Source: Nemopilema nomurai
Taxonomy: Eukaryota; Cnidaria; Scyphozoa; Rhizostomeae; Rhizostomatidae
Direction: 5' to 3'
DNA: 64,000 bases
Assembly: GCA_003864495.1 (NCBI GenBank)
Contig: ML133387.1
Coordinates: 586,287 to 650,286, forward strand
This document shows positions 14,519 to 58,949 of this stretch, one piece after another; the first letter of the stretch is position 1; each line of letters starts with the position of its first letter. A program made the position numbers and the translations under genes. The notes under the pieces are model-generated. The model was not told where the DNA came from and did not search any database. It was given only the letters and a program-made list of their open reading frames with translations.

Positions 14519-15266
14519 TTGCTTGATAATCACATTTGTTTTTTCTTTACTTTAGAAGACATTTGAGGGTCTTAGATCTCAACGATGGTCTACTCAGTTT
14601 TATAAGAGAGTATTTTTTCTTGATCGCTCCTTGATGAGTTAAGGTGAGTTTTGATGTGCAGTCCTAATTTTGATGATCATCATCTTTCCAAAGCCGTCAA
14701 TATATTCTTTATACTCTTACAGTTTGACTGTTGTTTTGTCTAGTTGGAAGTGATTTGATGGTTTCAGTTATGTCCTGAAACAATTCTTTCCTTGCCCTCG
14801 CGGCATTTCTCTTGTTTCGCTTACCGTTCTTCGTTAAGCTGCACGTCTGTATTTTCCTTTGTAGTTGTTTTGATCATTTTCTTCATCAACGTGAGTTTTT
14901 ATGTTTTCTTTTTCAATGTATGTTGATTGCTTGGCCAAAACATCAAAAATGGTTATTACTATGAAGAAATCCAGAAACTGAACCGTGAACAGCTTATTTC
15001 ATATTGTTAGACAAAGTTAGACGTAGGTAATCGCCACGGGCTTCAGCTCATTCTAAACATATTGTGCCCTTGACCATTTTTTTATTGGAATTATCCACAT
15101 TGTTCTATGTGATTTTGCATCTTGATTTCTGTTTGTTGGCCGTAGATTGGTGGAAGCTTATATTTCTGTCAGGAATTAGTGCGCAAAATGACTTGCAAAT
15201 ATACAGGCCTGGTTTTGAATCTTGGAGGAAGCCGAGCATAAACAGGATTTTCAAGATAGTTGCATA
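14519..15266. repeat. Junction sequence J1, copy 1 (non-satellite)
   Basis: Unique-looking sequence that starts where the satellite ends (after CTCTCATGTATTT) and stops at the N gap. It matches 36183-36930 at a constant offset of 21664 bp with very few differences (for example AAGCTTA at 15156 against AACCTTA in the other copy). No gene is recognised. A frame open across it begins at a GTG and has no family resemblance. It is either a second allele or a segmental duplicate of the left edge of the island. Confidence 0.9.
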
Positions 15267-16187
15267 NNNNNNNNNNNNNNNNNNNNNNNNNNNNNNNNNN
15301 NNNNNNNNNNNNNNNNNNNNNNNNNNNNNNNNNNNNNNNNNNNNNNNNNNNNNNNNNNNNNNNNNNNNNNNNNNNNNNNNNNNNNNNNNNNNNNNNNNNN
15401 NNNNNNNNNNNNNNNNNNNNNNNNNNNNNNNNNNNNNNNNNNNNNNNNNNNNNNNNNNNNNNNNNNNNNNNNNNNNNNNNNNNNNNNNNNNNNNNNNNNN
15501 NNNNNNNNNNNNNNNNNNNNNNNNNNNNNNNNNNNNNNNNNNNNNNNNNNNNNNNNNNNNNNNNNNNNNNNNNNNNNNNNNNNNNNNNNNNNNNNNNNNN
15601 NNNNNNNNNNNNNNNNNNNNNNNNNNNNNNNNNNNNNNNNNNNNNNNNNNNNNNNNNNNNNNNNNNNNNNNNNNNNNNNNNNNNNNNNNNNNNNNNNNNN
15701 NNNNNNNNNNNNNNNNNNNNNNNNNNNNNNNNNNNNNNNNNNNNNNNNNNNNNNNNNNNNNNNNNNNNNNNNNNNNNNNNNNNNNNNNNNNNNNNNNNNN
15801 NNNNNNNNNNNNNNNNNNNNNNNNNNNNNNNNNNNNNNNNNNNNNNNNNNNNNNNNNNNNNNNNNNNNNNNNNNNNNNNNNNNNNNNNNNNNNNNNNNNN
15901 NNNNNNNNNNNNNNNNNNNNNNNNNNNNNNNNNNNNNNNNNNNNNNNNNNNNNNNNNNNNNNNNNNNNNNNNNNNNNNNNNNNNNNNNNNNNNNNNNNNN
16001 NNNNNNNNNNNNNNNNNNNNNNNNNNNNNNNNNNNNNNNNNNNNNNNNNNNNNNNNNNNNNNNNNNNNNNNNNNNNNNNNNNNNNNNNNNNNNNNNNNNN
16101 NNNNNNNNNNNNNNNNNNNNNNNNNNNNNNNNNNNNNNNNNNNNNNNNNNNNNNNNNNNNNNNNNNNNNNNNNNNNNNNNNNNNNNN
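15267..16187. other. Assembly gap (921 N)
   Basis: A run of N separates J1 copy 1 from satellite block II. Its left side is island sequence and its right side is satellite. In the other copy, J1 continues for at least 13 kb without satellite, so this gap joins two pieces that are not neighbours in the other copy. Any reading frame drawn through it is meaningless. Confidence 0.99.
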
Positions 16188-19100
16188 CCCTTTTAGAATC
16201 CTTTGCATATATTGACTCTAATTTTTGAAAGAGATTGTCATCATGTGTCCGTTCCATATTCTTCTGCTATCCCTTTATTTTGAATCTAGTGTCCATCTGT
16301 TCCTTCATGTATTCTTACCCTTTTGGAATTCTTTGCATATATTGACTCTATATTTGTGAAGAGATTGTCATCATGTGTCCGTTCCTTAATCTTCTGCTAT
16401 CCCTTTATTTTGAATCTAGTTTTCATCTGTTCCTCTTATGTATCTTACCCTTTTAGAATCCTTTGCATATATTGACTCTAATTTTGTGAAAAGATTGTCA
16501 TCATGTGTCCGTTCCTTATTCTTCTGCTATCCCTTTATTTTGAATCTAGTGTCCATCTGTTCCTCTCATGTATCTTACTCTTTTAGTCCTTTGATATATT
16601 GACTCTATTTTTGTAAAGAGATTGTCATCATGTGTCCGTTCCTTATTCTTCTGCTATCCCTTTATTTTGAATCTAGTGTTCATCTGTTCCTCTCATGTAT
16701 TTTACTCTTTTAAAGTCCTTTCATATATTGACTCTATTTTGTGAAAGATTGTCATCATGTGTCCGTTCCTTATTCTTCTGCTATCCCTTTATTTTGAATC
16801 TAGTGTCCATCTGTTCCTCTCATGTATCTTACCCTTTTAGAATCCTTTGCATATATTGACTCTAATTTTGTGAAGAGATTGTCATCATGTGTCCGTTCCT
16901 TTTTCTTCTGCTATCCCTTTATTTTGAATGTAGTGTTCATCTGTTCCTCTTATGTATCTTAGAATCCTTTGCATATATTGACTCTAATTTTGTGAAAAGA
17001 TTGTCATCATGTGTCCGTTCCTTATTCTTCTGCTATCCCTTTATTTTGAATCTAGTGTTCATCTGTTCCTCTCATGTATCTTACCCTTTTAAATCCTTTG
17101 CATATATTGACTCTAATTTTGTGAAGAGATTGTCATCATGTGTCCGTTCCTTATTCTTCTGCTATCCCTTTATTTTGAATCTAGTGTTCATCTGTTCCTC
17201 TTATGTATCTTACCCTTTTAGAATCCTTTGCATATATTGACTCTATTTTGTGAAGAGATTGTCATCATGTGTCCGTTCCTTATTCTTCTGCTATCCCTTT
17301 ATTTTGAATCTAGTGTCATCTGTTCCTCTCATGTATCTTACCCTTTTAGAATCCTTTGCATATATTGACTCTAATTTTGTGAAAAGATTGTCATCATGTG
17401 TCCGTTCCTTATTCTTCTGCTATCCCTTTATTTTGAATCTAGTGTTCATCTGTTCCTCTCATGTATCTTACTCTTTTAAAGTCCTTTGCATATATTGACT
17501 TTAATTTTGTGAAAAGATTGTCATCATGTGTCCGTTCCTTATTCTTCTGTTATCCCTTTATTTTGAATCTAGTGTTCATCTGTTCCTCTCATGTATTTAC
17601 CCTTTTAGAATCCTTTGCATATATTGACTTAATTTTGTGAAAGAGATTGTCATCATGTGTCCGTTCCTTATTCTTCTGCTATCCCTTTATTTTGAATCTA
17701 GTGTTCATCTGTTCCTCTATGTATCTTACCCTTTTAGAATCCTTTGCATATATTGACTCTAATTTTGTGAAAAGATTGTCATCATGTGTCCGTTCCTTAT
17801 TCTTCTGCTATCCCTTTATTTTGAATCTAGTGTTCATCTGTTCCTCTCATGTTCTTACCCTTTTAGAATCCTTTGCATATATTGACTCTAATTTTGTGAA
17901 AAGATTTCATCATGTGTCCGTTCCTTTTCTTCTGCTATCCCTTTATTTTGAATCTAGTGTTCATCTGTTCCTCTCATGTTCTTACCCTTTTAGAATCCTT
18001 TGCATATATTGACTCTAATTTTGTAAAAGATTGTCATCATGTGTCCGTTCCTTATTCTTCTGCTATCCCTTTATTTTGAATCTAGTGTCCATCTGTTCCT
18101 CTCATGTTCTTACCCTTTAGAATCCTTTGCATATATTGACTTATTTTGTGAAAGATTGTCATCATGTCCGTTCCTTATTTTCTGCTATCCCTTTCTTTTG
18201 AATCTAGTGTCCATCTGTTCCTCTCATGTATCTTACCCTTTTAGAATCCTTTGCATATATTGACTCTATTTTGTGAAAGATTGTCATCATGTGTCCGTTC
18301 CTTATTCTTCTGCTATCCCTTTATTTTGAATCTAGTGTTCATCTGTTCCTCTCATGTATCTTACCCTTTTAGAATCCTTTGCATATATTGACTCTAATTT
18401 TGTGAAAAGATTGTCATCATGTGTCCGTTCCTTATTCTTCTGCTATCCCTTTATTTTGAATCTAGTGTTCATCTGTTCCTCTCATGTATCTTACTCTTTT
18501 AAAGTCCTTTGCATATATTGACTTAATTTTCGTGAAAAGATTGTCACCATGTGTCCGTTCCTTATTCTTCTGCTATCCCTTTCGTTTGAAGCTAGTGTTC
18601 ATCTGTTTCTCTCATGTATTTTCCTTTTAGAATCCTTTGCATATATTGACTCTATTTTGTGAAGAGATTGTCATCATGTGTCCGTTCCTTATTCTTCTGC
18701 TATCCCTTTATTTTGAATCTAGTGTTCATCTGTTCCTCTCATGTATCTTACCCTTTTGGAATTGTTTGCATATATTGACTCTATTTTGTGAAAGATTGTC
18801 ATCATGTGTCCGTTCCTTATTCTTCTGCTATCCCTTTATTTTGAATCTAGTGTTCATCTGTTCCTCTTATGTATCTTACCTTTTTAGAATCCTTTGCATA
18901 TATTGACTCTAATTTTGTGAAGAGATTGTCATCATGTGTCCGTTTTATATTCTTCTGCTATCCCTTTCTTTTGAATCTAGTGTTCATCTGTTCCTCATTT
19001 ATATTACCCTTTTGGAATTCTTTGCATATATTGACTCTATTTTGTGAAGAGATTGTCATCATGTGTCCGTTCCTTATTCTTCTGCTATCCCTTTATTTTG

Positions 19101-19879
19101 AATCTAGTGTCCATCTGTTCCTCTCATGTTTCTTACCCTTTTAGAATCCTTTGCATATATTGACTCTATTTTGTGAAAGATTGTCATCATGTGTCCGTTC
19201 CTTATTCTTCTGCTATCCCTTTATTTTGAATCTAGTGTCCATCTGTTCCTCTCATGTATCTTTACCTTTTAGAATCCTTTGCATATATTGACTCTATTTG
19301 TGTGAAGAGATTGTCATCATGTGTCCGTTCCTTATTCTTCTGCTATCCCTTTATTTTGAATCTAGTGTTCATCTGTTCCTCTCATGTATCTTACCCTTTT
19401 AGAATCCTTTGCATATATTGACTCTAATTTTGTGAAAAGATTGTCATCATGTGTCCGTTCCTTATTCTTCTGCTATCCCTTTATTTTGAATCTAGTGTTC
19501 ATCTGTTCCTCTTATGTATCTTACCCTTTTGATCTTTGTATATTGACTCTATTTTTGTGAAGAGATCGTCATCATGGGTCCGTTCCATATTCTTTGCATA
19601 TATTGACTCTATTTTTGTAAAGAGATTGTCATCACGTGTCCGTTTCTTACTTTTGTGCTATCCATTTCTTTTGAATATAGTGTTCATCTGTTCCTCTAAT
19701 GTATTTAACCTTTTCAGAATTCTTTGCATATATTGACTCCTTTTTTGTAAAGAGATTGTCATCATGTGTCCGTTCCTTATTCTTCTGCTTTCCCTTTATT
19801 TTGAATCTAGTGTCCATTTGTTCCTCTCATGTTTCTTATCCTTTTGGAATTCTTTGCATATGTTGACTCTATTTTTGTG

Positions 19880-21540
19880 AAAAGATTGTCATCATGTGTC
19901 CGTTCCATTATCTTCTGCTTTCCCTTTCTTTTAAATCTAGTGTTCATCTGCTCATCTCATGTATCTTACAATTTTAGAATTCTTTGCATATCTTGACACT
20001 ATTTTCGAGAAGAGATTGTCATCATGTGTCCGTTCGTTATTCTTCTGCTATCCCTTTCTTTTGAATCTAGTGTTTATCTGTTCCTCTGATGTATCTTATC
20101 CTTTTGGAATTCTTTGCATATGTTGACTCTTTTTTCGTGAAGAGATCGTCATCATGGGTCCGTTCCATATTCTTTGCATATATTAACTCTATTTTTGTGA
20201 AGAGATTGTCATCACGTGTCCGTTTCTTACTTTTGTGCTATCCATTTCTTTTGAATATAGTGTTCATCTGTTCCTCTAATGTATCTTACCCTTTTCAGAA
20301 TTCTTTAAATCTATTGACTCCTTTTTTGTGAAGAGATTGTCCTCATTTGTCCGTTCAATTCACTTCTGCTATCCCTTTCTTTTGAATCTATTGTTCATCT
20401 GTTCCTCTAATGTATCTTACTCTTTTAGAATTTTTTGCATATTATACATCTATTTTCGTGAAGAGATTGTCATCATGTGTCCGTTCTTTATTCTTCTGCT
20501 ATCCCTTTATTTTGAATCTAGTGTCCATCTGTTCCTCTCATGTTTCTTACCCTTTTAGAATCCTTTGCATATATTGACTCTAATTTTGTGAAAAGATTGT
20601 CATCATGTGTCCGTTCCTTATTCTTCTGCTATCCCTTTATTTTGAATCTAGTGTCCATCTGTTCCTCTCATGTTTCTTACCCTTTTAGAATCCTTTGCAT
20701 ATATTGACGGTAATTTTGTAAAGAGATTGTCATCATGTGTCCGTTCTTTATTCTTCTGCTATCCCTTTATTTTGAATCTAGTGTCCATCTGTTCCTCTCA
20801 TGTTCTTACCCTTTTAGAATCCTTTGCATATATTGACTCTAATTTTGTGAAAAGATTGTCATCATGTGTCCGTTCCTTATTCTTTTGCTATCCATTTATT
20901 TTGAATCTAGTGTCCAGCTGTTCCTCTCATGTTTCTTACCCTTTTAGAATCCTTTGCATATATTGACTCTAATTTTGTGAAAAGATTGTCATCATGTGTC
21001 CGTTCCATTATCTTCTGCTTTCCCTTTCTTTTAAATCTAGTGTTCATCTGCTCATCTCATGTATCTTACACTTTTAGAATTCTTTGCATATCTTGACACT
21101 ATTTTCGAGAAGAGATTGTCATCATGTGTCCGTTCGTTATTCTTCTGCTATCCCTTTCTTTTGAATCTAGTGTTTATCTGTTCCTCTGATGTATCTTATC
21201 CTTTTGGAATTCTTTGCATATGTTGACTCTATTTTCGTGAAGAGATCGTCATCATGGGTCCGTTCCATATTCTTTGCATATATTAACTCTATTTTTGTGA
21301 AGAGATTGTCATCACGTGTCCGTTTCTTACTTTTGTGCTATCCATTTCTTTTGAATATAGTGTTCATCTGTTCCTCTAATGTATCTTACCCTTTTCAGAA
21401 TTCTTTAAATCTATTGACTCCTTTTTTGTGAAGAGATTGTCCTCATTTGTCCGTTCAATTCACTTCTGCTATCCCTTTCTTTTGAATCTATTGTTCATCT
21501 GTTCCTCTAATGTATCTTACTCTTTTAGAATTTTTTGCAT
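19880..21540 (+). repeat. 1100-bp higher-order repeat, two partial copies
   Basis: Sequence from about 19880 to 20440 recurs at 20980 to 21540 with an offset of 1100 bp, which equals eight 130-bp monomers plus one 60-bp deleted monomer. Shared private variants include CCATTATCTTCTGCTTTCCC, CTGCTCATCTCATG, CTTGACACTATTTTCGAG and TTCTTTAAATCTATTGACTCC. Confidence 0.75.
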
Positions 21541-24500
21541 ACATTGACTCTATTTTCGTGAAGAGATTGTCATCATGTGTCCGTTCCTAATTCTTCTGCT
21601 ATCCCTTTCTTTTGAATCTAGTGTCCATCTGTTCCTCTCATGTTTCTTACCCTTTTAGAATCCTTTGCATATATTGACTCTAATTTTGTAAAGAGATTGT
21701 CATCATGTGTCCGTTCGTTATTCTTCTGCTATCCCTTTCTTTTGAATCTAGTGTCCATCTGTTCCTCTCATGTTTCTTACCCTTTTAGAATCCTTTGCAT
21801 ATATTGACTCTAATTTTGTAAAGAGATTGTCATCATGTGTCCGTTTCTTTTTCTTCTGCTATCCCTTTATTTTGAATCTAGTGTCCATCTGTTCCTTTCA
21901 TGTTTCTTACCTATTTAGAATCCTTTGCATATATTGACTCTAATTTTGTTAAGAGATTGTCATCATGTGTCCGTTCCTTATTCTTCTGCTATCCCTTTAT
22001 TTTGAATCTAGTGTCTCATCGTTCCTCTCATTTTCTTACCCTTTTAGAATCCTTTGCATATAATTGACTCTAATTTTGTGAAAAGATTGATATGTGTCCG
22101 TTCCTTATTCTTCTGCTATCCCTTTATTTTGAATCTAGTGTCCATCTGTTCCTCTCATGTATCTTACCCTTTTAGAATCCTTTGCATATATTGACTGTAA
22201 TTTTGTAAAGAGATTGTCATCATGTGTCCGTTCTTTATTCTTCTGCTATCCCTTTATTTTGAATCTAGTGTCCATCTGTTCCTCTCATGTTTCTTACCCT
22301 TTTAGAATCCTTTGCATATATTGACTCTAATTTTGTGAAAAGATTGTCATCATGTGTCCGTTCCTTATTCTTCTGCTATCCCTTTATTTTGAATCTAGTG
22401 TCCATCTGTTCCTCTCATGTTTCTTACCCTTTTAGAATCCTTGCATATATTGACTGTAATTTTGTAAAGAGATTGTCATCATGTGTCCGTTCTTTATTCT
22501 TCTGCTATCCCTTTATTTTGAATCTAGTGTCCATCTGTTCCTCTCATGTTTCTTACCCTTTTAGAATCCTTTGCATATATTGACTCTAATTTGTTGAAAA
22601 GATTGTCATCATGTGCCCGTTCCTTATTCTTCTGCTATCCCTTTATTTTGAATCTAGTGTCCATCTGTTCCTCTCATGTTTCTTACCCTTTAGAAATCCT
22701 TTGCATATATTGACGGTAATTTTGTAAAGAGATTGTCATCATGTGTCCGTTCTTTATTCTTCTGCTATCCCTTTATTTTGAATCTAGTGTCCATCTGTTC
22801 CTCTCATGTTTCTTACCCTTTTAGAATCCTTTGCATATATTGACTCTAATTTTGTGAAAAGATTGTCATCATGTGTCCGTTCCTTATTCTTTTGCTATCC
22901 ATTTATTTTGAATCTAGTGTCCATCTGTTCCTCTCATGTTTCTTACCCTTTTAGAATCCTTTGCATATATTGACTCTAATTTTGTGAAAAGATTGTCATC
23001 ATGTGTCCGTTCCTTATTCTTCTGCTATCCCTTTATTTTGAATCTAGTGTCCATCTGTTCCTCTCATGTATTTTACCGTTTTAGAATCCTTTGCATATAT
23101 TGACTCTAATTTTGTAAAGAGATTGTCATCATGTGTCCGTTCCTTATTCTTCTGCTATCCCTTTATTTTGAATCTAGTGTCCATCTGTTCCTCTCATGTC
23201 TTCCCTTTTAGAATCCTTTGCATATATTGACTCTAATTTTGTGAAAAGATTGTCATCATGTGTCCGTTCGTTATTCTTCTGCTATCCCTTTCTTTTGAAT
23301 CTAGTGTTTATCTGTTCCTCTGATGTATCTTATCCTTTTGGAATTCTTTGTATATGTTGACTCTATTTTCGTGAAGAGATCGTCATCATGGGTCCGTTCC
23401 ATATTCTTTGCATATATTGACTTTATTTTTGTGAAGAGATTGTCATCACGTGTCCGTTTCTTACTTTTGTGCTATCCATTTCTTTTGAATATAGTGTTCA
23501 TCTGTTCCTCTAATGTATCTTACCCTTTTCAGAATTCTTTGCATATCTTGACACTATTTTCGAGAAAAGATTGTCATCATGTGTCCGTTCGTTATTCTTC
23601 TGCTATCCCTTTCTTTTGAATCTAGTGTTTATCTGTTCCTCTGATGTATCTTATCCTATTGGAATTCTTTGCATATGTTGACTCTATTTTCGTGAAGAGA
23701 TCGTCATCATGGGTCCGTTCCATATTCTTTGCATATATTAACTCTATTTTTGTGAAGAGATTGTCATCACGTGTCCGTTTTTCTTACTTTGCTATCCATT
23801 TCTTTTGAATATAGTGTTCATCTGTTCCTCTAATGTATCTTACCCTTTTCAGAATTCTTTAAATCTATTGACTCCTTTTTTGTGAAGAGATTGTCCTCAA
23901 AGTTTGTCCGTTCCATTCTCTTCTGCTATCCCTTTCTTTTGAATCTAGTGTTCATCTGTTCCTCTAATGTATCTTACTCTTTTAGAATTTTTTGCATATA
24001 TTGACTCTATTTTCGTGAAGAGATTGTCATCATGTGTCCGTTCCTAATTCTTCTGCTATCCCTTTCTTTTGAATCTAGTGTCCATCTGTTCCTCTCATGT
24101 TTCCTACCCTTTTAGAATCCTTTGCATATATTGACTCTAATTTTGTAAAGAGATTGTCATCATGTGTCCGTTCCTTATTCTTCTGCTATCCCTTTATTTT
24201 GAATCTAGTGTCCATCTGTTCCTCTCATGTTTCTTACCCTTTTAGAATCCTTTGCATATATGACTCTAATTTTGTAAAGAGATTGTCATCATGTGTCCGT
24301 TTCTTTTTCTTCTGCTATCCCTTTATTTTGAATCTAGTGTCCATCTGTTCCTTTCATGTTTCTTACCTATTTAGAATCCTTTGCATATATTGACTCTAAT
24401 TTTGTAAAGAGATTGTCATCATGTGTCCGTTCCTTATTCTTCTGCTATCCCTTTATTTTGAATCTAGTGTCCATCTGTTCCTCTCATGTATTTTACCCTT

Positions 24501-27500
24501 TTAGAATCCTTTGCATATATTGACTCTAATTTTGTGAAAAGATTGTCATCATGTGTCCGTTCCTTATTCTTCTGCTATCCCTTTATTTTGAATCTAGTGT
24601 CCATCTGTTCCTCTCATGTATTTTATCCTTTTGGAATTCTTTGCATATATTGACTCTATTTTCGTGAAGAGATTGTCATCATGTGTCCGTCTTATTCTTT
24701 CTGCTATCCCTTTATTTTGAATCTAGTGTCCATCTGTTCCTCTCATGTTTCTTACCCTTTTAGAATCCTTTGCATATATTGACTCTATTTTGTGAAAGAT
24801 TGTCATCATGTGTCCGTTCTATATTCTTCTGCTATCCCTTTCTTTTGAATCTAGTGTTCATCTGTTCCTCTCATGTATCTTATCCTTTTGGAATTCTTTC
24901 CATATATTGACTCTATTTTTGTGAAACGATTGTCATCATGTGTCCGTTCCATTATCTTCTGCTATCCCTTTCTTTTGAATCTAGTATTCATCTGCTCCTC
25001 TCATGTATCTTATCGTTTTAGAATTCTTTGCATATATTGACTCTATTTTTGTGAAGAGATTGTCATCATGTGTCCGTTCCATATTCTTCTGCTATCCCTT
25101 TATTTTGAATCTAGTGTCCATCTGTTCCTCTCATGTATCTTACCTTTTAGAATCCTTTGCATATATTGACTCTAATTTTGTGAAAAGATTGTCATCATGT
25201 GTCCGTTCCTTATTCTTCTGCTATCCCTTTATTTTGAATCTAGTGTCCATCTGTTCCTCTCATGTATTTTACCGTTTTAGAATCCTTTGCATATATTGAC
25301 TCTAATTTTGTAAAGAGATTGTCATCATGTGTCCGTTCCTTATTCTTCTGCTATCCCTTTATTTTGAATCTAGTGTCCATCTGTTCCTCTCATGTATCTT
25401 ACCCTTTTAGAATCCTTTGCATATATTGACTCTATTTTGTGAAAAGATTGTCATCATGTGTCCGTTCCTTATTCTTCTGCTATCCCTTTCTTTTGAATCT
25501 AGTGTTTATCTGTTCCTCTGATGTATCTTATCCTTTTGGAATTCTTTGTATATGTTGACTCTATTTTCGTGAAGAGATCGTCATCTGTCCGTTCCATATT
25601 CTTTGCATATATTGTCTTTATTTTTGTGAAGAGATTGTCATCATGTGTCCGTTCTTATTTTGTGCTATCCCTTTCTTTTGAATATAGTGTTCATCTGTTC
25701 CTCTAATGTATCTTACCCTTTTCAGAATTCTTTGCATATCTTGACACTATTTTTGAGAAAAGATTGTCATCATGTGTCCGTTCCTTATTCTTCTGCTATC
25801 CCTTTCTTTTGAATCTAGTGTCCATCTGTTCCTCTCATGTTTCTTACCCTTTTAGAATGCATATATTGACTCTAATTTTGTGAAAAGATTGTCATCATGT
25901 GTCCGTTCCTTATTCTTCTGCTATCCCTTTATTTTGAATCTAGTGTCCATCTGTTCCTCTCATGTATTTTATCCTTTTGGAATTCTTTGCATATATTGAC
26001 TCTAATTTTGTGAAAAGATTGTCATCATGTGTCCGCTCTTTATTCTTCTGCTATCCCTTTATTTTGAATCTAGTGTCCATCTGTTCCTCTCATGTTTCTT
26101 ACCCTTTTAGAATCCTTTGCATATATTGACTCTAATTTTGTGAAAAGATTGTCATCATGTGTCCGTTGCTTATTCTTCTGCTATCCCTTTCTTTTGAATC
26201 TAGTGTTCATCTGTTCCTCTCATGTATCTTATCCTTTTGGAATTCTTTCCATATATTGACTCTATTTTTGTGAAACGATTGTCATCATGTGTCCGTTCCA
26301 TTATCTTCTGCTATCCCTTTCTTTTGAATCTAGTATTCATCTGCTCCTCTCATGTATCTTATCGTTTTAGAATTCTTTGCATATATTGACTCTATTTTTG
26401 TGAAGAGATTGTCATCATGTGTCCGTTCCATATTCTTCTGCTATCCCTTCCTTTTGAATCTAGTGTTCATCTGTTCCTCTCATGTATCTTATCGTTTTAG
26501 AATTCTTTGCATATATTGACTCTATTTTTGTGAAGAGATTGTCATCATGTGTCCGTTCCTTATTCTTCTGCTTTCCCTTTCTTTTGAATCTAGTGTTCAT
26601 CTGTTCCTCTAATGTATCTTATCCTTTTAGAATTCTTTGCATATATTGACTCTATTTTCGTGAAGAGATTGTCATCATGTGTCCGTTCCATATTTTCTGC
26701 TATCCCTTTCTTTTGAATCTAGTGTTCATCTGTTCCTCTAATGATCTTACTCCTGTAGATTTCTTTGCATATATTGTCTCTATTTTTGTGAAGAGATTGT
26801 CATGATGTGTCCGTTCCTTATTCTTCTGCTATCCCTTGATTTTGAATCTAGTGATCATCTGTTCCTCTCATGTATCTTATCCTTTTGGAATTCTTTGCAT
26901 ATGTTGACTCTATTTTCGTGAAGAGATTGTCATCATGTGTCCGTTGCTTATTCTTCTGCTTTCCCTTTCTTTTGAATCTAGTGTTCATCTGTTCCTCTAA
27001 TGTATCTTATCCTTTTGGAATTCTTTGCATATGTTGACTCTATTTTCGTGAAACGATTGTCATCATGTGTCCGTTCCATTATCTTCTCCTATCCCTTTCT
27101 TTTGAATCTAGTGTTCATCTCCTCATCTCATGTATCTTACTCTTTTAGAATTCTTTGCATATATTGACTCTATTTTTGTGAAGAGATTGTCATCATGTGT
27201 CCGTTCTATATTCTTCTGCTTCCCTTTCTTTTGAATCTAGTGTTCATCTGTTCCTCTAATGTATCTTATCCTTTTAGAATTCTTTGCATATATTGACTCT
27301 ATTTTCGTGAAGAGATTGTCATCATGTGTCCGTTCCATATTTTCTGCTATCCCTTTCTTTTGAATCTAGTGTTCATCTGTTCCTCTAATGAATCTTACTC
27401 CTTTAGATTTCTTTGCATATATTGACTCTATTTTTGTGAAGAGATTGTCATCATGTATCCGTTGCTTATTCTTCTGCTTTCCCTTTCTTTTGAATCTAGT

Positions 27501-44763: not shown

Positions 44764-44800
44764 CTGGTGACAGGAGCGTTTTGACCCACATCACTTTACA

Positions 44801-45559: not shown

Positions 45560-45690
45560 TCTTTTCTTCAGAGAGAACCTAATTTGCTTTGGTTAACAGG
45601 AACATTACATGGACAGCAAATTCCCATGATGCTTGATTGTGGTGACGTATGACTTTGAAGAATTCTCTGTTCTTGCTAAAGCTCATGGCC
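45560..45690 (+). pseudogene. Aspartic protease remnant of element A
   Basis: A short frame reads LLWLTGTLHGQQIPMMLDCGD. LDCGD sits where Gypsy proteases have the catalytic LDTGA motif, so the key Thr is changed. The frame then breaks. Protease normally cuts Gag-Pol; this one is too short and altered to act. Confidence 0.5.
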
Positions 45691-45693
45691 TAA

Positions 45694-48185: not shown

Positions 48186-48190
48186 CATAG

Positions 48191-48211
48191 GAAGAGAGAT
48201 GGGGAGGGGGA
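48191..48211 (+). promoter_or_regulatory. Polypurine tract of element A
   Basis: An all-purine run (GAAGAGAGATGGGGAGGGGG and one more A) ends 3 bp before the 3' LTR, the position where plus-strand DNA synthesis is primed in LTR elements. The same tract is at 56985-57005 in A'. Confidence 0.85.
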
Positions 48212-48214
48212 TAC

Positions 48215-48375
48215 TGTTATCCCCTGTGGACAACAGTATTAAAATATGTGCATAAATCATATCTAGCCTCTATAACAGTTAGCACGTGTTGTAAGACAGT
48301 TTTTTGTGTGTACGATTATGATGAAGACAAATATAATTTGAAGCCTTTTTACGTCTCAATATTTGGTTTACTACA
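48215..48375 (+). repeat. 3' LTR of element A
   Basis: 161 bp, same ends as the 5' LTR, with about 12 differences from it but only about two from the A' LTR at 57009-57169. So A and A' descend from one old insertion and separated much later. It is followed by the AAGG target copy. Confidence 0.93.
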
Positions 48376-50178
48376 AAGGTGTAGTCACAACAACAGGAAT
48401 GACCAGGACAGTACTCGATAAGCATAAAGCTTTATCAGTGTCCTAAAAACTTCCTTCAGATACTAGGTAGAAACAAATACAAACACAAATGATATTTTAC
48501 TTTTCAGAATATGAAGACACACGAAAGCCCCTAACACAAAAAGGTGCTTTTTAATACAGGAATTCCCATCGTGTGCTTACTTAGGAAGTTACCTAAGACA
48601 ACCTGTATTGGGAGTAAATGAAGGGCTGAAACTAATGATACAAACATTGATATACAATGGAATACTTTCTATGCATAATTTGAATAGCCAACCACATCTT
48701 ATTCAAATAAATCAAGTTTATCATTTTAAATCAATGTTGAAAGCCTTTCCTAGAGCTTTGAATGCTTCAGAGGGAAAGCAAGAGAAGAATTGAAACTTTT
48801 GTAAGGGATGTCAGAAAAGGGATTGCTTCTCTTCTTTTTAAGCATGTTATCTTACAATGCTTAAGGTTCATACTTTTTCTGTATGCAAAGTATGAAGAAT
48901 GTGATTCAAGTGATCTTTATTGTATTAAAATTGGAAGAAAAATTGGAAGGTTTTGGGTTCTGAACGACTACTTTTGCTCTCCTTGCATGAACAATGTTTG
49001 CTTTTCAAGCCCTACCTTGCCATGAACTGTTAGAAATAAAGGATACAGGGATTTATGACACTAGACTATTCTTTTAACAGTGAAGGTGAGTTTCCAAGTC
49101 CAAGAATTAATGTTAATTATTCAGTAGGGAAAGTTGTTTACTTTTCTTGTTCACTATTCTTTCTCTCTTCCTGTTTTCTGTACATCTTTTTATGTTTCAG
49201 TTGTTAAACTAGAGAGTAACTTTTTGGAAACTTTGGTTGCCCTTCTAAGGGAAAATTTATAACGGAACTGAAAGTTTTGACTTTGACATCATTACCATTC
49301 TTCAAGAGTTGTTATTTTCTTGCAGCAGAGACAATTGGGAGTGCTGACAGTCGAAGTGAAAATCATCAGAACAGTTCTAACCATGAGTTGTGGTGGATTA
49401 CTTTTTGACCAACCGATGTGAGTTTGATAACGAGGCTTTATTGTGATGGTTGTTTAGATGAATGTAAACTTTGTGGACCATGCCAGAATTTCAAGTTCCT
49501 TCCATTTATCATTGTTTTGTTGTTGTTACGATTTCAACATCAGCTTCTTCTCCACAATCTTCATCGCCATCTTGATCCTTATCTTCATCATCTTCATCAT
49601 CTTTACCACATCCTTGCAGTTTTTTATACTGTTTTGTGGAGTCGGAAATGGCTGGGTTGATTCACCTAAAGCAGGCCTTACTGGAAATGGCATGCGATCG
49701 CTCTTGCACGTCTTGGCACAGGCCTTCCTTCCCCTAGGAGTGCGAGTTATCGCACGCCTTGTTCCGGGGCTATGATTTACCGGAAACCTTTCAAACGACA
49801 ATTATTGGTCCATTGATTAAAAACGACTTCATTTTGTTGCATGGTTTCCGTTGTTTACAGTTAAAATCAAACAAACACCCGTTTTTACAAGGTAAACGAC
49901 ATGTATATATATAGCTGACTCACGTTAGATAGCTTTGGGTTGATTCTTGTTGTTGGATGGTTTGATGAGAGGATTGATAAAAGTGCTAAATTATTTGATT
50001 CAAATCGAACTTACCTAGTAGCAGTTTTGAGTTCTAAGCCTACAATAGAGGACCCAGGTGCTTTCCCTTTTTCAGCTTCTTAATTGCTTTTAATATATTC
50101 TCTCTGGTGACATACTCAGTAGGTCCTTCTACAAGTTCAGACTAAGTGTTCTCAACCCACTTACTTACCAACTCAACC
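48376..50178. repeat. Right flank of element A, copy 1
   Basis: 1.8 kb of non-satellite sequence between the 3' LTR and the satellite, matched almost throughout by 57170-58949. Copy 1 has about 30 extra bases near 48500. No protein family is recognised. Splice-like signals (GAAG/GTGAGT at about 49083, TTTATGTTTCAG at 49200, TTTTCTTGCAG at 49325) suggest it may hold the end of an old gene. Around 49680-49780 is a GC-richer imperfect inverted repeat (ATGGCATGCGATCGC against GCGATAACTCGCAC in reverse). The flank ends with ACTCAACC just before the satellite. Confidence 0.85.
49326..49409 (+). other. Possible terminal exon in the flank
   Basis: After TTATTTTCTTGCAG, a good 3' splice site with a pyrimidine tract, a frame reads AETIGSADSRSENHQNSS, continues NHELWWITF and stops at 49407-49409. 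The same acceptor and frame are kept in the other copy (about 58098-58181). No domain is seen and the upstream exons are not established, so this is only a candidate end of a host or captured gene. Confidence 0.25.
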
Positions 50179-50978
50179 TATCCCTTTTATTTTTGAATCT
50201 AGTGTCATCTGTTCCTTCTATATATCTTACTCTTTTAAAGTCCTTTGCATATATTGACTCTTTTTTGTGAAGAGATTGTCATCATGTTCGTTCCATATTT
50301 TCTGCTATCCCTTTATTTTGAATCTAGTGTTCATCTGTTCCTCTCATGTATCTTACCCTTTTAGAATCCTTTGCATATATTGACTCTTTTTGTGAAGAGA
50401 TTGTCATCATGTGTCCGTTCCTTATTCTTCTGCTATCCTTTATTTTGAATCTAGTGTTCATCTGTTCCTCTCATGTATCTTACCCTTTTAGAATCCTTTG
50501 CTCTATTTTTGAAAGAGATTGTCATCATGTGTCCGTTCCTTTTCTTCTGCTATCCTTTATTTTGAATCTAGTGTTCATCTGTTCCTCTCATGTTCTTACC
50601 TTTTAAATCCTTTGCATATATTGACTTATTTTGTAAAAGATTGTCATCATGTGTCCGTTCCTTATTCTTCTGCTATCCCTTTATTTTGAATCTAGTGTCC
50701 ATCTGTTCCTCTCATGTTTTACCTTTTAGAATCCTTTGCATATATTGACTCTATTTTGTGAAAAGATTGTCATCATGTGTCCGTTCCTTATTCTTCTGCT
50801 ATCCCTTTATTTTGAATCTAGTGTTCATCTGTTCCTCTCATGTATTTACCCTTTTAGAATCCTTTGCATATATTGACTCTAATTTTGTGAAAAGATTGTC
50901 ATCATGTGTCCGTTCCTTATTCTTCTGCTATCCTTTATTTTGAATCTAGTGTTCATCTGTTCCTCTCATGTTTCTTAC
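50179..50978 (+). repeat. 129/130-bp satellite array, block III
   Basis: Six to seven monomers of the indel-rich CCTTTGCATATA/ATTTTGTG subfamily, same orientation as the other blocks. It begins TATCCCTTTT at the same monomer position as block IV (58950) and is cut by an N gap after TTTCTTAC. That end is almost in phase with the CCCTTTTAG that opens block II at 16188. Confidence 0.95.
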
Positions 50979-51253
50979 NNNNNNNNNNNNNNNNNNNNNN
51001 NNNNNNNNNNNNNNNNNNNNNNNNNNNNNNNNNNNNNNNNNNNNNNNNNNNNNNNNNNNNNNNNNNNNNNNNNNNNNNNNNNNNNNNNNNNNNNNNNNNN
51101 NNNNNNNNNNNNNNNNNNNNNNNNNNNNNNNNNNNNNNNNNNNNNNNNNNNNNNNNNNNNNNNNNNNNNNNNNNNNNNNNNNNNNNNNNNNNNNNNNNNN
51201 NNNNNNNNNNNNNNNNNNNNNNNNNNNNNNNNNNNNNNNNNNNNNNNNNNNNN
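50979..51253. other. Assembly gap (275 N)
   Basis: Separates satellite block III from the middle of Gypsy element B. The gap is too short to hold the missing 5' LTR, gag and the rest of element A' that should lie upstream, so its size is nominal or the join is wrong. Confidence 0.97.
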
Positions 51254-51989
51254 CAGTGTGGGGACTCCTGTATTTTCACCGAACATGGACATCCCCGTTG
51301 ATTTGAATTGTTCATTGAGTTCGAGGTTAGCGAAAGAAGGAGTTTGGGTTAGTGGTAAAGTAAATAATGTTGATGCTGATATTTTTGTTGATACGGGAGC
51401 CAAGTACACAATAATTGATTTTGATTTTTGGAGAAAATTATGTTTTGATAATAAAATTCTTGATACGCATGTTTGTTTAGTTGGTGCTGGGGGAAAGAAT
51501 CTTGAAGTTGTTGGTGAGGGTAATGTTTGGTTAGAAATTGGACACCAATGTTTAGAACTGCAAGTAATTCTTGTAGAAAATTTCAAATTTGATTTTTTGT
51601 TGGGTAATGATTTTTTGAAGAGCCAGAATGCAATAATTGATTATGGAAGGAAATTGCTTATGCTAGGGACTGCTGAAATTCCTTTTGAATCATTGCCATC
51701 TGATTGTGTTGCCATTTTGAGATCTGTTGTAGTTTTGCCTGTAGGGGCACCTGTGCGTGTCAAGGCAGAATTGGTGGGGAATCATTGTGGGTTAGCTTTG
51801 TTTGGGGAGCGACAGCTAGTTAGAGCTGATGATCGAGTTTTAGTTGCCCCGGTTGTAACAGAAGCTGATTCCGATAATTCTGTCTTGATCGAGTTAGCTA
51901 ACACGACTCGCAGTACAGTATCTTTACAGCCTGGTACTAAAGTCATGCATTTGCAGCCGTTTATCATCAGATGTGAACGCCAGTCATGA
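51254..51989 (+). CDS. Protease-containing 3' part of gag-pro, element B (partial)
   Basis: An open frame entering from the gap and ending at TGA 51987-51989, about 245 codons. It holds a retropepsin-type aspartic protease: the catalytic loop DTGAKYTIID (DTGA at 51390-51401), a glycine-rich flap-like segment VGAGGKNLEV, and FLLGNDFLKSQNAIIDYGRK, the second family signature. The protease matures the Gag-Pol polyprotein in the particle. After the protease lies a 90-residue linker. In the +1 frame the sequence continues as SDVNASHDDYAAENISE towards RT, so either a frameshift links pro to pol or this is a mutation. The N terminus is missing. Confidence 0.88.
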
Positions 51990-52119
51990 TGATTATGCTG
52001 CCGAAAACATTTCTGAAGTGCCCATTGAAGACCTCAACATCGGACACTTGTCAAGAAAACAACAATCAGATCTGCTTTCAGTCCTAAAGAAACACCATGT
52101 TTGGCCAACATCGGGATAA
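51990..52119 (+). pseudogene. Pro-pol linker of element B with an in-frame stop
   Basis: In the pol frame the sequence reads EVPIEDLNIGHLSRKQQS, DLLSVLKKHHVWPTSG, then TAA (52117-52119), then LGTTHLVEH. Linkers of this kind (LSxxQxxxLLxLLxxH just before the RT fingers) are continuous in active Gypsy elements. The stop may be a small indel in TCGGGATAATTGGGG. It, and the frame change near 51987, would prevent a normal Pro-Pol fusion unless both are bypassed. Confidence 0.65.
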
Positions 52120-54942
52120 TTGGGGACAACACACCTTGTAGAGCATCCAATCGATGTGCAGGGAGCCTATCCAGTCAGACAACGGCCATATCGTGTTCCA
52201 GAGACGAAACGACAGCAAATACGAAAAGAGGTGAAAAAGATGCTACTTTCAAATGTCATCCAGCCTTCATCCAGTCCGTGGAGCAGTCCCGTACTTTTGT
52301 TGGAAAAGCCAAATGGTGAATTTCGATTCTGCGTGGACTACCGACGGTTGAATGCCGAGACGAAGAAAGATGCCTACCCCCTTCCGAGGATAGATGAAAC
52401 ATTGGACGCCCTGGGAAATGCAGCTTGGTTCACAACGCTAGATCTGCAGTCCGGATTTTGGCAAATTCCAGTGAAGAAAAGCGACATCGAAAAAACCGCG
52501 TTTGCTACCCATCATGGACACTGGGAATTCCGTGTAATGCCATTTGGCCTAGCCAACGCTCCCGCCACATTTCAGCGACTGATGGACCTCGTGTTATCTG
52601 GGTTGCACTGGACACACTGCCTGGTATATTTAGACGATATTGTGGTTTTTGCTGCAACAGAAGAAGAGCATACACATCGACTGAATCTAGTCTTGGAAAG
52701 AGTTGCGAAAGCCGGCCTGACGTTAAAACCCTCAAAGTGCCACTGGATGCAAAAATCAGTGAAGTTTCTTGGTCATATCGTCTCGTCAGATGGAATTTCC
52801 GTGGATCCAGCAAAGGTGAAATCAGTAAGTTGTTTCCCATTACCTCAGAATTCTACTGATGTTCGAAGTTTTCTAGGACTTACGTCCTATTACAGACGGT
52901 TCATTCCAGAGTTTGCCAGCCGTTCAAAGCCACTAGCTGACCTCACGAAAAAGAAATGCAAATTTGTGTGGAATAAAGATGCTCAAAAATCATTTGATGA
53001 CCTCCAACACTGTCTAACGTCAGCCCCAATTTTGAGGTGCCCAGACTTCAGTTTACCGTTTAAGCTGTATACAGATGCATGCGAATATGGCATTGGAGCA
53101 GTTCTCGCCCAAGACACGCCTAATGGTGAAGTGGTAATTGCATACGCCAGTAGATTGCTGAAGTCCTCTGAAAGGAAATATGGAGTTTTGCAGAAGGAAG
53201 CATTGGGTATCGTATGGTCGCTAAAACATTTTTACCCTTACCTTTATGGCCGACATTTTTTAGTTATTACCGATCACAGGCCCCTGAAATGGTTAAAGAC
53301 AATGACTGCCCCGAATAACCTATTTGCACGATGGATTAGCGAGATTCAAAGTTACGATTTCGAAGTAAAACACAGGCCAGGCAGACTTCACTCAAATGCA
53401 GATATATTGTCGAGGTACCCTTTAGCGGGAGAAGACAGCCGGGAAGCCAAAGCAGTGGAAAGCCCTGTATCCCCCTGCCCCTTGAAGGAAGAAGATGACG
53501 TCATGCTGGTAACAGACTTCAAAACGCTACAAGAAAATGATACGTACGCTGGGGCACTGATGAGACTCTTGAAACAAGGAAAAGCACCTGATGATATGAA
53601 ACTTGCTGCTAAACTGGAAAGGGATAAAGAATCGTTCTTTCTGGGAGACGATGGATGTGTTTATCGAAGATTCAAGTCAAAACAAGGGAGAACACAGGAA
53701 CAATTTGTGGTACCAAAATCAATGGTTGGTAAGTTGCTCGTGAACTCCCATGATATACCTATTTCAGCACATCCAGGGTTTTACAGGACATATAAGAAGA
53801 TCCAGCAATCCTCTTTTTGGCCTACCACGAAGACTGACATCAATCGCCATGTAAGACATTGTGAGGAATGCGCCAGATTCGGAGCGTCGTCAAAACCAGC
53901 TCATAAAACGCCGATGAAATCGATTGTTACAGAAAGGCCACTGCAGATAGTCGCGATGGATTTTGTAGGACCACTGCCAATGTCAGAACAAGGAAACACA
54001 TATGCCCTCGTCATGGTGGATCATTTCACACGTTGGCCAATTGCTTACGCTGTAGAAGACGCGGAAGCACAGACGGTTGCACAAAAAGTCAGCAGTTTTA
54101 TACATACCTATGGATGTCCCGAAGAGCTACTTTCAGACAGAGGAAGTCAATTCACGTCAGAATTATTGAAGGCATTATGCAAGCAGTTAGGAGTCAAGAA
54201 GATCTACACCTGTGCATTTCGACCCTCTACCAACGGCCTAAATGAGCGCTTGAACGGGACACTTTTCAATGCAATACGAATCTATGCCTCTGACAAGCCA
54301 TCCACTTGGGATCAGTACCTCGATGCTGTGACCTTCGCCTATAGGACAACACCGCACTCTGTAACCCACCATACCCCTGCGTTCATGATGTTTGGAAGAG
54401 AGTTGAATTCGCCTGCCGACATGAAGCCCCCGACACGTCTTTACACAGACGATTTCCTGAAGACAATGCAGAACGAACGCCAGCGTGCATATGCAGTCGC
54501 CAAAGAGTTGGTATCAGACGAACAACGCCGTCAGAAGAAAAATCATGACAAGCATATTAAGCAACTCAATGTCAAACAAGGAGAAAAGGTATGGCTTCGA
54601 AATTTTATTGTTAAAAAAGGGACGTCAAAGAAATTCCATCAACCATGGACAGGACCATATGAAGTGACAAAAGTGATAGGTAGCAACAATGTAGAACTTC
54701 TAATGCCCGGGAAGAAAAGGGATAAAATCAAAAGAGTTAACATTGAACAGGTCAAGCCAGCACGAGAGATTGATGGAAAACCGGATCAAATTGTAAGGGT
54801 CCACGACAAGTTGCGCTCAAGAATACCGGGACAGAGACTCGTTACAAGGTATTTTGTAGAATTTAACGATGGACACACTCAATGGATTGCTGCAGACTTC
54901 GTTCCAGACAAACTTCTAGAAGAATTCAATGCGAAGAAATAA
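52120..54942 (+). CDS. Pol (RT-RNase H-integrase) of element B
   Basis: 940 codons open from just after a stop; TTG is the first possible codon and no true start is implied. RT at about residues 20-260: FCVDYRRLN, LDLQSGFWQIPV (catalytic Asp 108) and YLDD at 170-173. RNase H at about 315-432: YTDACEYGIGA (Asp 319), QKEALGI (Glu 360), ITDHRPLKWL (Asp 385), ending NADILSRYP. Integrase: zinc finger H544-x6-H551-x29-C581-x2-C584, then core Asp 614 (AMDFVGPLP), Asp 673 (LSDRGSQF) and Glu 709 (NGLNERLNG), a D,D-35-E spacing. A GPY/F module (WTGPYEV, about 843-849) follows, then a tail RYFVEFNDGHTQWIAADF that might be a chromo-like fold. All catalytic residues are present. Together these enzymes would copy and insert the element. 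Confidence 0.95.
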   Translation: MGTTHLVEHPIDVQGAYPVRQRPYRVPETKRQQIRKEVKKMLLSNVIQPSSSPWSSPVLLLEKPNGEFRFCVDYRRLNAETKKDAYPLPRIDETLDALGNAAWFTTLDLQSGFWQIPVKKSDIEKTAFATHHGHWEFRVMPFGLANAPATFQRLMDLVLSGLHWTHCLVYLDDIVVFAATEEEHTHRLNLVLERVAKAGLTLKPSKCHWMQKSVKFLGHIVSSDGISVDPAKVKSVSCFPLPQNSTDVRSFLGLTSYYRRFIPEFASRSKPLADLTKKKCKFVWNKDAQKSFDDLQHCLTSAPILRCPDFSLPFKLYTDACEYGIGAVLAQDTPNGEVVIAYASRLLKSSERKYGVLQKEALGIVWSLKHFYPYLYGRHFLVITDHRPLKWLKTMTAPNNLFARWISEIQSYDFEVKHRPGRLHSNADILSRYPLAGEDSREAKAVESPVSPCPLKEEDDVMLVTDFKTLQENDTYAGALMRLLKQGKAPDDMKLAAKLERDKESFFLGDDGCVYRRFKSKQGRTQEQFVVPKSMVGKLLVNSHDIPISAHPGFYRTYKKIQQSSFWPTTKTDINRHVRHCEECARFGASSKPAHKTPMKSIVTERPLQIVAMDFVGPLPMSEQGNTYALVMVDHFTRWPIAYAVEDAEAQTVAQKVSSFIHTYGCPEELLSDRGSQFTSELLKALCKQLGVKKIYTCAFRPSTNGLNERLNGTLFNAIRIYASDKPSTWDQYLDAVTFAYRTTPHSVTHHTPAFMMFGRELNSPADMKPPTRLYTDDFLKTMQNERQRAYAVAKELVSDEQRRQKKNHDKHIKQLNVKQGEKVWLRNFIVKKGTSKKFHQPWTGPYEVTKVIGSNNVELLMPGKKRDKIKRVNIEQVKPAREIDGKPDQIVRVHDKLRSRIPGQRLVTRYFVEFNDGHTQWIAADFVPDKLLEEFNAKK

Positions 54943-55018
54943 ACTGGACTATACGTAATTTTTTTGATAATTAGATAAGATTAATACGGTATTTTATCTT
55001 CGGTAACATAATTAATCT

Positions 55019-55029
55019 TAGGAGGGAGG
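55019..55029 (+). promoter_or_regulatory. Polypurine tract of element B
   Basis: The run AGGAGGGAGG ends within a few bases of the 3' LTR start (TGTCACGAACC at 55032), the expected site for priming plus-strand synthesis. 54943-55018 is AT-rich non-coding DNA. Confidence 0.75.
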
Positions 55030-55031
55030 TG

Positions 55032-55623
55032 TGTCACGAACCCTCCTTTGTGCGTTCCTTTTACCCCCTTAGGCCCGTCTCCACAGCTTGCTTACATTCT
55101 CCCCGTAGACCCATTTATTTTAGGATCTTCTGTTTTGCATATCATTATCGTAGGCTACCCCTGGCACGCACGTAAGCAAGTCTGCGTCACATCCCCTCTC
55201 TTTGTTTTGTTTATAGGTGCGGGATTTTCCCAGGATTGTTAGACCGTAATGCCTAGTTTAGTCATCGTTGTTTATTTCGTTTTCCTTGTATCACAGGTAT
55301 CATTTACGTATGTTTTTATTTAGTTTAGCGTCATTAAGCTTGTTTTAGCATACCTATTCAGCCCTTCCCTTCCTTTCCCATGTTTTCACGTCGTACTTTT
55401 TACGTATTTCATGTCGTTAATGAAACTTGCTCATTATTTTCTAAATATAGATCCTCTTGCTTTTAAGTATATATACAGCATGTAAAGTTTGAATAGGAGG
55501 ATGAGTTGAAGTGGCTCAAAGAAGTAAGTGAACCTTCTGTGTTTGTGCTATCTTGGTTATACCTTTAGTCTTTAAGGACTACTGTTAGGATAACGTAAGT
55601 CTCACAACACACGGTGTGTGACA
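55032..55623 (+). repeat. 3' LTR of element B
   Basis: 592 bp with perfect 6-bp inverted ends, TGTCAC ... GTGACA. A TATA box (TATATATA, 55468-55475) lies about 150 bp before its end and could drive transcription by analogy with LTR promoters. The start could be two bases earlier (TGTGTCAC). The right end is fixed by the return of element A sequence at 55624. Confidence 0.88.
55468..55475 (+). promoter_or_regulatory. TATA box in the LTR of element B
   Basis: TATATATA preceded by TTTTAAG and followed by CAGCATG, inside the LTR at a place that fits a core promoter. No other promoter motif was sought successfully. Confidence 0.5.
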
Positions 55624-57008: not shown

Positions 57009-57169
57009 TGTTATCCCCTGTGGACAACAGTATTAAAATATGTGCATAAATCACATCTAGCCTCTATTACAGTTAGCACGTGTTGTAAGACAGTTTTTTG
57101 TGTGTACGATTATGATGAAGACAAATATAATTTGAAGCCTTTTTACGTCTCAATATTTGGTTTACTACA
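57009..57169 (+). repeat. 3' LTR of element A'
   Basis: 161 bp, with about two differences from the LTR at 48215-48375 (CACATCTAG for CATATCTAG, TATTACAG for TATAACAG). The following AAGT is the changed AAGG target copy. Confidence 0.92.
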
Positions 57170-58949
57170 AAGTTGTAGTCACAACAACAGGAATGACCAG
57201 GACAGTACTCGATAAGCATAAAGCTTTATCAGTGTCCTAAGAACTTCCTTCAGATACTAGGTAGAAACAAATACAAACACAAATGATCTTTTACAAACAC
57301 AAAAGGTGCTTTTTAATACAGGATTTCTCTTTGTGTGCTTACTTAGGAAGTTACCTAAGACAACCTGTATTGGGAGTAAAGGGCTGAAACTAATGATACA
57401 AACATTGAAATACAATGGAATACTATCTATGCATAATTTGAATAGCCAACCACATCTTATTCAAATGAATCAAGTTTATAATTTTAAATCAATGTTGAAA
57501 GCCTTTCCTAGAGCTTTGAATGCTTCAGAGGGAAAGCAAGAGAAGAATTGAAACTTTTGTAAGGGATGTCAGAAAAGGGATTGCTTCTCTTCTTTTTAAG
57601 CATGTTATCTTACAATGCTTAAGGTTCATACTTTTTCTGTATGCAAAGTATGAAGAATGTGATTCAAGTGATCTTTATTGTATTAAAATTGGAAGAAAAA
57701 TTGGAAGGTTTTGGCTTCTGAACGACTACTTTTGCTCTCCTTGCATGAGACAATGTTTGATTTTCAAGCCCTACCTTGCCATGAACTGTTAGAAATAAAG
57801 GATACAAGGATTTATAACACTAGATTAGTCTTACAACATTGAAGGTGAGTTTCAAAGTCTAAGAATTAATGTTAATTATTCAGTAGGTGAAAGTTGTTTA
57901 CTTTTCTTGTTCACTATTCTTTCTCTCTTCCTGTTTTCTGTACATCTTTTTATGTTTCAGTTGTTAAACTAGAGAGTAACTTTTTGGAAACTTTGGTTGC
58001 CCTTCTAAGGGAAAATTTATAATGGAACTGAAAGTTTTGACTTTGACATCTTGATTTGAGAATTACCATTCTTCAAGAGTTGTTATTTTCTTGCAGCAGA
58101 GACAATTGGGAGTGCTGACAGTCGAAGTGAAAATCATCAGAACAGTTCTAACCATGAGTTGTGGTGGATTACTTTTTGACCAATCGATGTGAGTTTGATA
58201 ACGAGGCTTTATTGTGATGGTTGTTTAGATGAATGTAAACTTTGTGGACCATGCCAGAATTTCAAGTTTCTTCCACTTATCATTGTTTTGTTGTTGTAAC
58301 GATTTCAACATCAGCTTCGTCTCCACAATCTTCATCGCCATCTTGATCATTATCTTCATCATCTTCATCATTTTTACCACATCCTTGTAGTTTTTTATAC
58401 TGTTTTGTGGAGTTGGAAATGGCTGGGTTGATTCACCTAAAGCAGGCCTTACTGGAAATGGCATGCGATCGCTCTTGCACGTCTTGGCACAGGCCTTCCT
58501 TCCCCTAGGAGTGCGAGTTATCGCACGCCTTGTTCCGGTGTTATGATTTACCGGAAACCTTTCAAACGCCAATTATTGGTCCATTGATTAAAAACGACTT
58601 CATTTTGTTGCATGGTTTCCGTTGTTTACAGTTAAAATCAAACAAACACCCGTTTTTACAAGGTAAACGAAATGTATATATATAGCTGACTCACGTTAGA
58701 TAGCTTTGGGTTGATTCTTGTTGTTGGATGGTTTGATGAGAGGCTTGATAAAAGTGCTAAATTATTTGATTCACGTCGAACCTACCTAGTAGCAGTTTTG
58801 AGTTCTAAGCCTACAATAGAGGACCCAGGTGCTTTCCCTTTTTCAGCTTCTTAATTGCTTTTAATATATTCTCTCTGGTGACATACTCAGTAGGTCCTTC
58901 TACAAGTTCAGACTAAGTGTTCTCAACCCACTTACTTACCAACTCAACC
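57170..58949. repeat. Right flank of element A', copy 2
   Basis: Near-copy of 48376-50178, 23 bp shorter overall, with scattered substitutions and small indels, including about 36 bp absent near 57290 and about 13 bp added near 58050. The splice-like signals and the small Cys-rich frame (CDGCLDECKLCGPC, about 58215-58256) are kept. It ends at the same satellite boundary. Confidence 0.88.

What the first reader, a model, noticed from the sequence alone, without database searches (positions are those of the whole stretch)
14519..58949. Both edges of the island occur twice: one allele (or duplicate) nested inside the other
J1 is at 14519 and 36183 (offset 21664). The right flank of element A is at 48376 and 57170. 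The satellite boundary is identical in both copies at both edges. The two N gaps fall exactly where a switch is needed. The pieces 1-15266 and 51254-64000 fit together as the outer parts of one copy, while 16188-50978 is a complete second copy. The satellite end at 50978 (TTTCTTAC) and the start at 16188 (CCCTTTTAG) are almost in phase, as if the inner contig had been cut from a continuous array. This is most likely an uncollapsed haplotig placed in a scaffold gap; a real tandem duplication of satellite plus island is the alternative.
Basis: partly seen in the sequence, partly recalled or inferred. Interest (0 to 1): 0.75.

Follow-up and report, generated by a model that had tools for sequence, protein, structure and literature searches.

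The report
Mis-ordered tandem satellite-and-transposon array
The repeated island edges are real, but the island is one of many tandem copies in a satellite array that the assembly seems to have joined partly in the wrong order, and the satellite itself seems to have grown from one small piece of an older, larger repeat that still lies on the same scaffold.

Summary
In detail: J1 lies at 14519 and 36183, the element-A right flank at 48376 and 57170, with the same satellite/island breakpoints. The interpretation mostly fails. In C23:440001-690000 of the window's own assembly the same left edge occurs 7 times and the same right edge 7 times, and two gap-free contigs each carry island-satellite-island, so tandem duplication explains most copies. 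The right outer piece (51254-64000) does not pair with 1-15266: its first 5,066 bp repeat, with 2 differences, the end of a contig 154 kb to the left, sharing its transposon junction. The inner copy's last 8,104 bp are base-for-base the end of a third contig. So these are probably mis-ordered, partly duplicated contigs of a tandem array, not a nested allele; whether the two J1 edges are alleles or paralogues needs reads. Further out, 1.4-1.9 kb tandem units on C23 and C30 hold, contiguously, island right end, one diverged satellite monomer (73-76%) and island left end. The satellite is best read as an amplified piece of that unit, the island as the rest of it plus transposons. Probably the jellyfish Nemopilema nomurai (inferred).

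The parts
1..14518 (+). 130-bp satellite array, contig c6 (C23:580012-601552), more homogeneous first, diverged towards J1
   Evidence: TRF; divergence by stretch
14519..15266 (+). left 748 bp of an island, cut by the gap
   Evidence: 99.6% to 36183-36930
15267..16187 (.). N gap 921
16188..36182 (+). satellite array, contig c7 (C23:602474-637264)
36183..50177 (+). complete island: unit-derived flanks plus transposons; its last 7.3 kb and the following satellite are identical to C23:668479-676582
36183..37226 (+). left flank of the island, homologous to the parent repeat unit and its edge
   Evidence: 72-76% to L033; genome-wide
42431..43331 (+). about 900-bp insertion present in 2 of the 6 copies that span the site (this one and C23:661783); no Pfam match for its two open frames
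44603..48375 (+). element A, degraded Ty3/gypsy-type element, 161-bp LTRs (44603-44763, 48215-48375) 92.5% alike
49514..50154 (+). right flank of the island, homologous to the parent unit (pieces at 68-92%)
50178..50978 (+). satellite after the island; identical to C23:675782-676582
50979..51253 (.). N gap 275
51254..55623 (+). part of a young Ty3/gypsy-type element (protease, RT, integrase) in contig c8; its start equals the end of contig c2
55624..58948 (+). right part of a diverged island copy (LTR 57009-57169)
58949..64000 (+). distinct, locally homogenised 129/386-bp satellite variant; 0 of 37 260-bp chunks have a >=99% match in any other array

Best explanation
A tandem higher-order array on C23:468-676 kb: units of 10-20 kb or more of 130-bp satellite plus a 13-14 kb island, duplicated with their edges, most likely by unequal exchange inside the satellite (inferred). 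The assembly broke it into about eight contigs at near-identical stretches and probably set some of them in the wrong order, with some sequence used twice. In the window, contig c8 (51254-64000) belongs with contig c2 about 150 kb to the left, and c7 (16188-50978) shares its last 8.1 kb with c9. The satellite monomer comes from an internal piece of a 1.4-1.9 kb tandem unit; the island is the rest of such a unit into which transposons inserted (homology shown, direction inferred).
For: 7 left and 7 right edges with the same breakpoints; gap-free tandem contigs c3 (23,054-bp period, 99.26% over 11.7 kb) and c5; suffix-prefix overlap c2/c8, 5,066 bp with 2 differences, and the same insertion junction; three exact repeats of 8,491, 8,104 and 3,904 bp against a next longest of 1,345 bp, the first rich in deletion-type differences from the satellite monomer that both copies share; satellite upstream of J1 falls into groups; parent units hold one satellite monomer between island ends, score 16.7 s.d. 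above 500 shuffles.
Against: No reads or depth. Gap-free contigs can themselves be wrong. The c2/c8 overlap is mostly a young element with four other ~100% copies genome-wide (801-bp query), so its low divergence alone proves little; the shared junction carries the argument, and c8 could be an allele or recent copy of c2's island. c8's satellite is not clearly closest to c2's (medians 91.4 to c3a, 90.2 to c2). The J1-side arrays of c6 and c7 are each other's nearest relative (medians 97.7 and 96.8), as alleles would be. Some left edges differ little (2 of 746 sites for c5a/c7), within reach of consensus error. c4 is not wholly a duplicate of c5: outside the exact block they differ (43 substitutions, 67 indel events).
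Confidence: 0.75

Rival explanations
1. One reading: a haplotig (16188-50978) was dropped into a gap of the other allele (1-15266 plus 51254-64000).
For: Gaps at the switch points; c6 and c7 share 819 exact bp left of J1 and their J1-side arrays are each other's nearest; an assembly of a wild diploid could hold haplotigs (inference).
Against: 7 edges of each kind; c8 matches c2's end; right ends differ by 1.9%; only 16-20% of J1-side array chunks match at >=99%.
Confidence: 0.12
2. The scaffold order is right and all copies are real recent tandem duplicates; the exact 8.1 and 8.5 kb blocks are gene-conversion tracts.
For: Gap-free c3 and c5; other pairs share substitution-free tracts, for example c3a/c7 over 3.2 kb.
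Against: Two exact blocks over 8 kb against 1.3 kb for the longest outside c2/c8, one ending at the same base in two contigs; shared deletion-type differences inside the other.
Confidence: 0.12
3. A side question, on the exact blocks only: a synthetic long read (TSLR) was pasted into two places during correction or gap closing, making the 8.1 and 8.5 kb blocks.
For: [quoted passage not shown] the Nemopilema paper says TSLRs were aligned to correct sequence and close gaps (passage).
Against: The satellite part of the 8,491-bp block is about as rich in deletion-type differences (18.6/kb) as the satellite beyond it (10.1/kb in c4, 22.5/kb in c5), not cleaner, which fits one noisy long read used in two contigs better. 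Species not proven.
Confidence: 0.25

Closest known systems
Satellites born from short internal tandem repeats of a larger repeat (Ogre 3'UTR repeats in Lathyrus, PMC7004042; passages seen, two of them from its summary)
   Same: A short internal piece of a larger repeat expands into long arrays
   Different: Here the parent is a 1.4-1.9 kb tandem unit, seen on C23 and C30 only (25 of 84 candidates scored), with about one monomer, not a dispersed LTR element; its coding content was not searched against family libraries
Satellite arrays with retroelement islands, as in Drosophila centromeres (recalled; not read here)
   Same: Blocks of satellite alternate with TE-rich islands
   Different: No centromere mark tested; here the island flanks derive from the satellite's own parent unit and the island is duplicated along with the array
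Uncollapsed haplotigs and repeat misjoins in long-read plus mate-pair assemblies (recalled)
   Same: Near-identical contigs set side by side, gaps at switch points
   Different: Here repeat-driven misordering and duplicated sequence explain more than allelism

Membership tests
Haplotig insertion | Two copies, paired across their whole length at allelic identity | tested here: not met
   7+7 edges; pairing differs left and right
Haplotig insertion | Half read depth on each copy | not testable with these tools
   No reads
Tandem higher-order satellite array | Repeated unit in direct orientation inside one gap-free contig | tested here: met
   c3 period 23,054 bp, c5 two islands; no shared reverse-complement 400-mers in 250 kb
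Satellite derived from a larger repeat | Monomer found singly inside the parent, flanked by the same sequences as the array | tested here: met
   against: the array starts in another monomer phase at J2 than in the parent, and 131 bp beside J1 are missing
Satellite derived from a larger repeat | Direction parent to satellite | not tested
   No outgroup species examined
Functional centromere | CENP-A occupancy | not testable with these tools
   None
Ty3/gypsy-type elements (element A and the c8 element) | Protease, RT and integrase domains between LTRs | tested here: inconclusive
   6 of 10 pieces matched Pfam: A has RVT_1 and Integrase_H2C2 (no protease found) and an LTR pair; the c8 element has protease, RVT_1, Integrase_H2C2 and rve, but no LTR pair was found in c2 or c8. 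Clade not tested by a tree

The most novel reading that the evidence does not exclude
A satellite-birth locus caught with its ancestor next door: one ~130-bp segment of a 1.4-1.9 kb tandem unit was amplified into 10-20 kb arrays, while the rest of the unit, loaded with transposons, was carried along as the island, giving a single-locus higher-order array (perhaps a young centromere or pericentromere) in a jellyfish.
Probability: 0.45. Interest if true: 0.5.

Novelty: new member of a known kind. Interest (0 to 1): 0.35.

Why it matters
It shows that copy counts and 'alleles' in this stretch of the assembly cannot be taken at face value: three contig pairs share duplicated sequence and one contig is probably about 150 kb out of place. 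It also gives a concrete, testable case of where a satellite came from, with the single-copy form of the monomer preserved about 100 kb away in the assembly.

Tried and rejected
Degenerate second monomer in the parent unit (131 bp after the satellite-like piece): rejected, z = 0.09. Clean synthetic-read origin of the exact blocks: weakened by their deletion-type differences. Structured RNA (hammerhead and others) in the window and in four loci (L033, L034, L032, L009): no Rfam match at gathering score. Mitochondrial COX1 to name the species: no match in the genome. Dating the c2/c8 link by divergence of the young element: dropped, since four other ~100% copies exist. c8's satellite being closest to c2's: seen in some 390-bp chunks, not upheld in 260-bp chunks. 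In print: searches for satellite DNA with jellyfish and Scyphozoa and for Nemopilema with satellite and tandem repeat listed 4 and 2 papers; none of them was opened, so I claim no absence from print.

Full report
Setting. The window is C23:586287-650286 of a 212.9-Mb, 226-contig genome. I read C23:440001-690000 and two short stretches further right. The organism is inferred. The assembly size fits Nemopilema nomurai (213 Mb, 255 scaffolds; FALCON contigs, SSPACE with mate pairs up to 20 kb, TSLR correction and gap closing; passages of PMC6441219). Mate pairs of that reach cannot order contigs across 20-30 kb repeat units (inference).

The observation. The inner copy is complete; the outer ones are an island left end (748 bp) and an island right part preceded by another transposon.

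More than two copies. A blast of the inner island against the 250 kb finds left edges at 472040, 509552, 546967, 573416, 600805, 622469 and 661783, and right edges near 499600, 522662, 528707, 559954, 636470, 645241 and 675788, with the same breakpoints. Some of this is redundant: the right edges of c4 and c5, and of c7 and c9, lie in exact duplicates, which leaves 5 right edges, two of which (c3a and c7) differ over 3.2 kb only by gaps and then in the satellite. The 7 left edges differ pairwise at 2 to 20 of about 747 sites. If these differences are real and each copy had an allele among them, there would still be at least 4 per haplotype.

Tandem, within contigs. Contig c3 (490423-525125) and the stretch 539651-579381 of c5 have no N. 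c3 holds the right part of an island, about 10 kb of satellite and a whole island; c5 holds a whole island, about 13.5 kb of satellite and the left part of another. In c3 the beginning and the end match over 11.7 kb at 99.26% with a period of 23,054 bp.

Who pairs with whom. The first 5,066 bp of c8 (window 51254-56319) equal the end of c2 (483766-488830) but for one substitution and one 1-bp indel; both contigs end inside the match, in suffix-prefix order, and the first 2 kb of c8 match no other contig here. Both carry the right junction of the same transposon insertion. c8 is the outlier among right ends (61-68 differences in about 3.1 kb), and c2 is among the outliers of left ends (20-42 substitutions in 2.7 kb, as are c5b and c9). 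c7 and c9 have all their differences in the first 6.7 kb and are identical for the last 8,104 bp, ending at the same base before a gap. c4 holds an 8,491-bp exact copy of a piece of c5, with divergent ends on both sides. The next longest exact repeat outside these three pairs is 1,345 bp. The satellite part of the 8,491-bp block is about as rich in deletion-type differences from my two monomer versions as ordinary satellite around it, so one noisy long read or consensus was probably used twice; real variation cannot be told from error here. The end of c5 also overlaps the start of c9 over 12 kb with 66 substitutions but 254 indel events, a possible further join that I did not resolve.

The two J1s of the window. 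They share 819 exact bp left of J1 and differ at 3 of 748 island sites. Their J1-side arrays are each other's nearest relatives, but only 20% of 97 and 16% of 121 chunks match at 99% or better, against 88% of 17 chunks for c3b in c3a. In both, the satellite is closer to my monomer versions far from J1 and diverged beside it. Alleles with rearranged satellites or paralogues: undecided.

Where the satellite comes from. Weak matches to the island led to 1.4-1.9 kb tandem units on C23:776-914 kb and C30:2.605-2.754 Mb, on the other strand (lists capped). There the island's right-end sequence is followed by a 163-bp piece like 1.26 satellite monomers (73-76%, 16.7 s.d. above 500 dinucleotide shuffles), then 131 bp that is not satellite (26 bp shorter in one of three units read), then the island's left-end sequence. 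With a 481-bp satellite query all 121 matches fell on C23:468-676 kb (8 of 12 candidates scored, so a lower bound). The simplest reading is that one monomer inside such a unit was amplified, and the rest of the unit became the island after transposon insertions such as element A (LTRs 92.5% alike; a 601-bp piece of its body occurs elsewhere only in fragments on C53 and C124). The direction is inferred; the array edge at J2 starts in another monomer phase than in the parent and the 131 bp are missing at J1, so rearrangement followed.

Verdict. The satellite's origin is a good example of a known kind.

Noticed in passing
C23:440001-450000 (L009): A different 178/357-bp satellite fills the stretch left of the array; a 357-bp query finds weak relatives (65-91%) on many other contigs, tandem on C102, C112 and C86 (35 of 59 candidates scored; its own array was not listed).
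   Followed up: partly
C23:685976-689997 (L032): A third satellite, 68-bp period, to the right of the array.
   Followed up: no
C23:661783-662140: The first ~350 bp of this island copy carry 17 substitutions against c7, 15 of them private among the seven copies, then near identity; a patch from a diverged copy or an assembly switch.
   Followed up: partly
C23:474764-478423: 3.66-kb insertion with inverted-repeat-like ends in the left-most island only.
   Followed up: no
window 52300-53100: This part of the young Ty3/gypsy-type element has four other ~100% copies (C14, C16, C112, C120): a recently active family.
   Followed up: partly
C23:776-914 kb and C30:2.605-2.754 Mb: Parent units are 98-99% alike between two scaffolds; possibly allelic scaffolds or an interchromosomal duplication.
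   Followed up: no
C23:573416-578425: Island copy with 55 private small deletions in 5 kb among five copies compared: poorly corrected contig end.
   Followed up: partly
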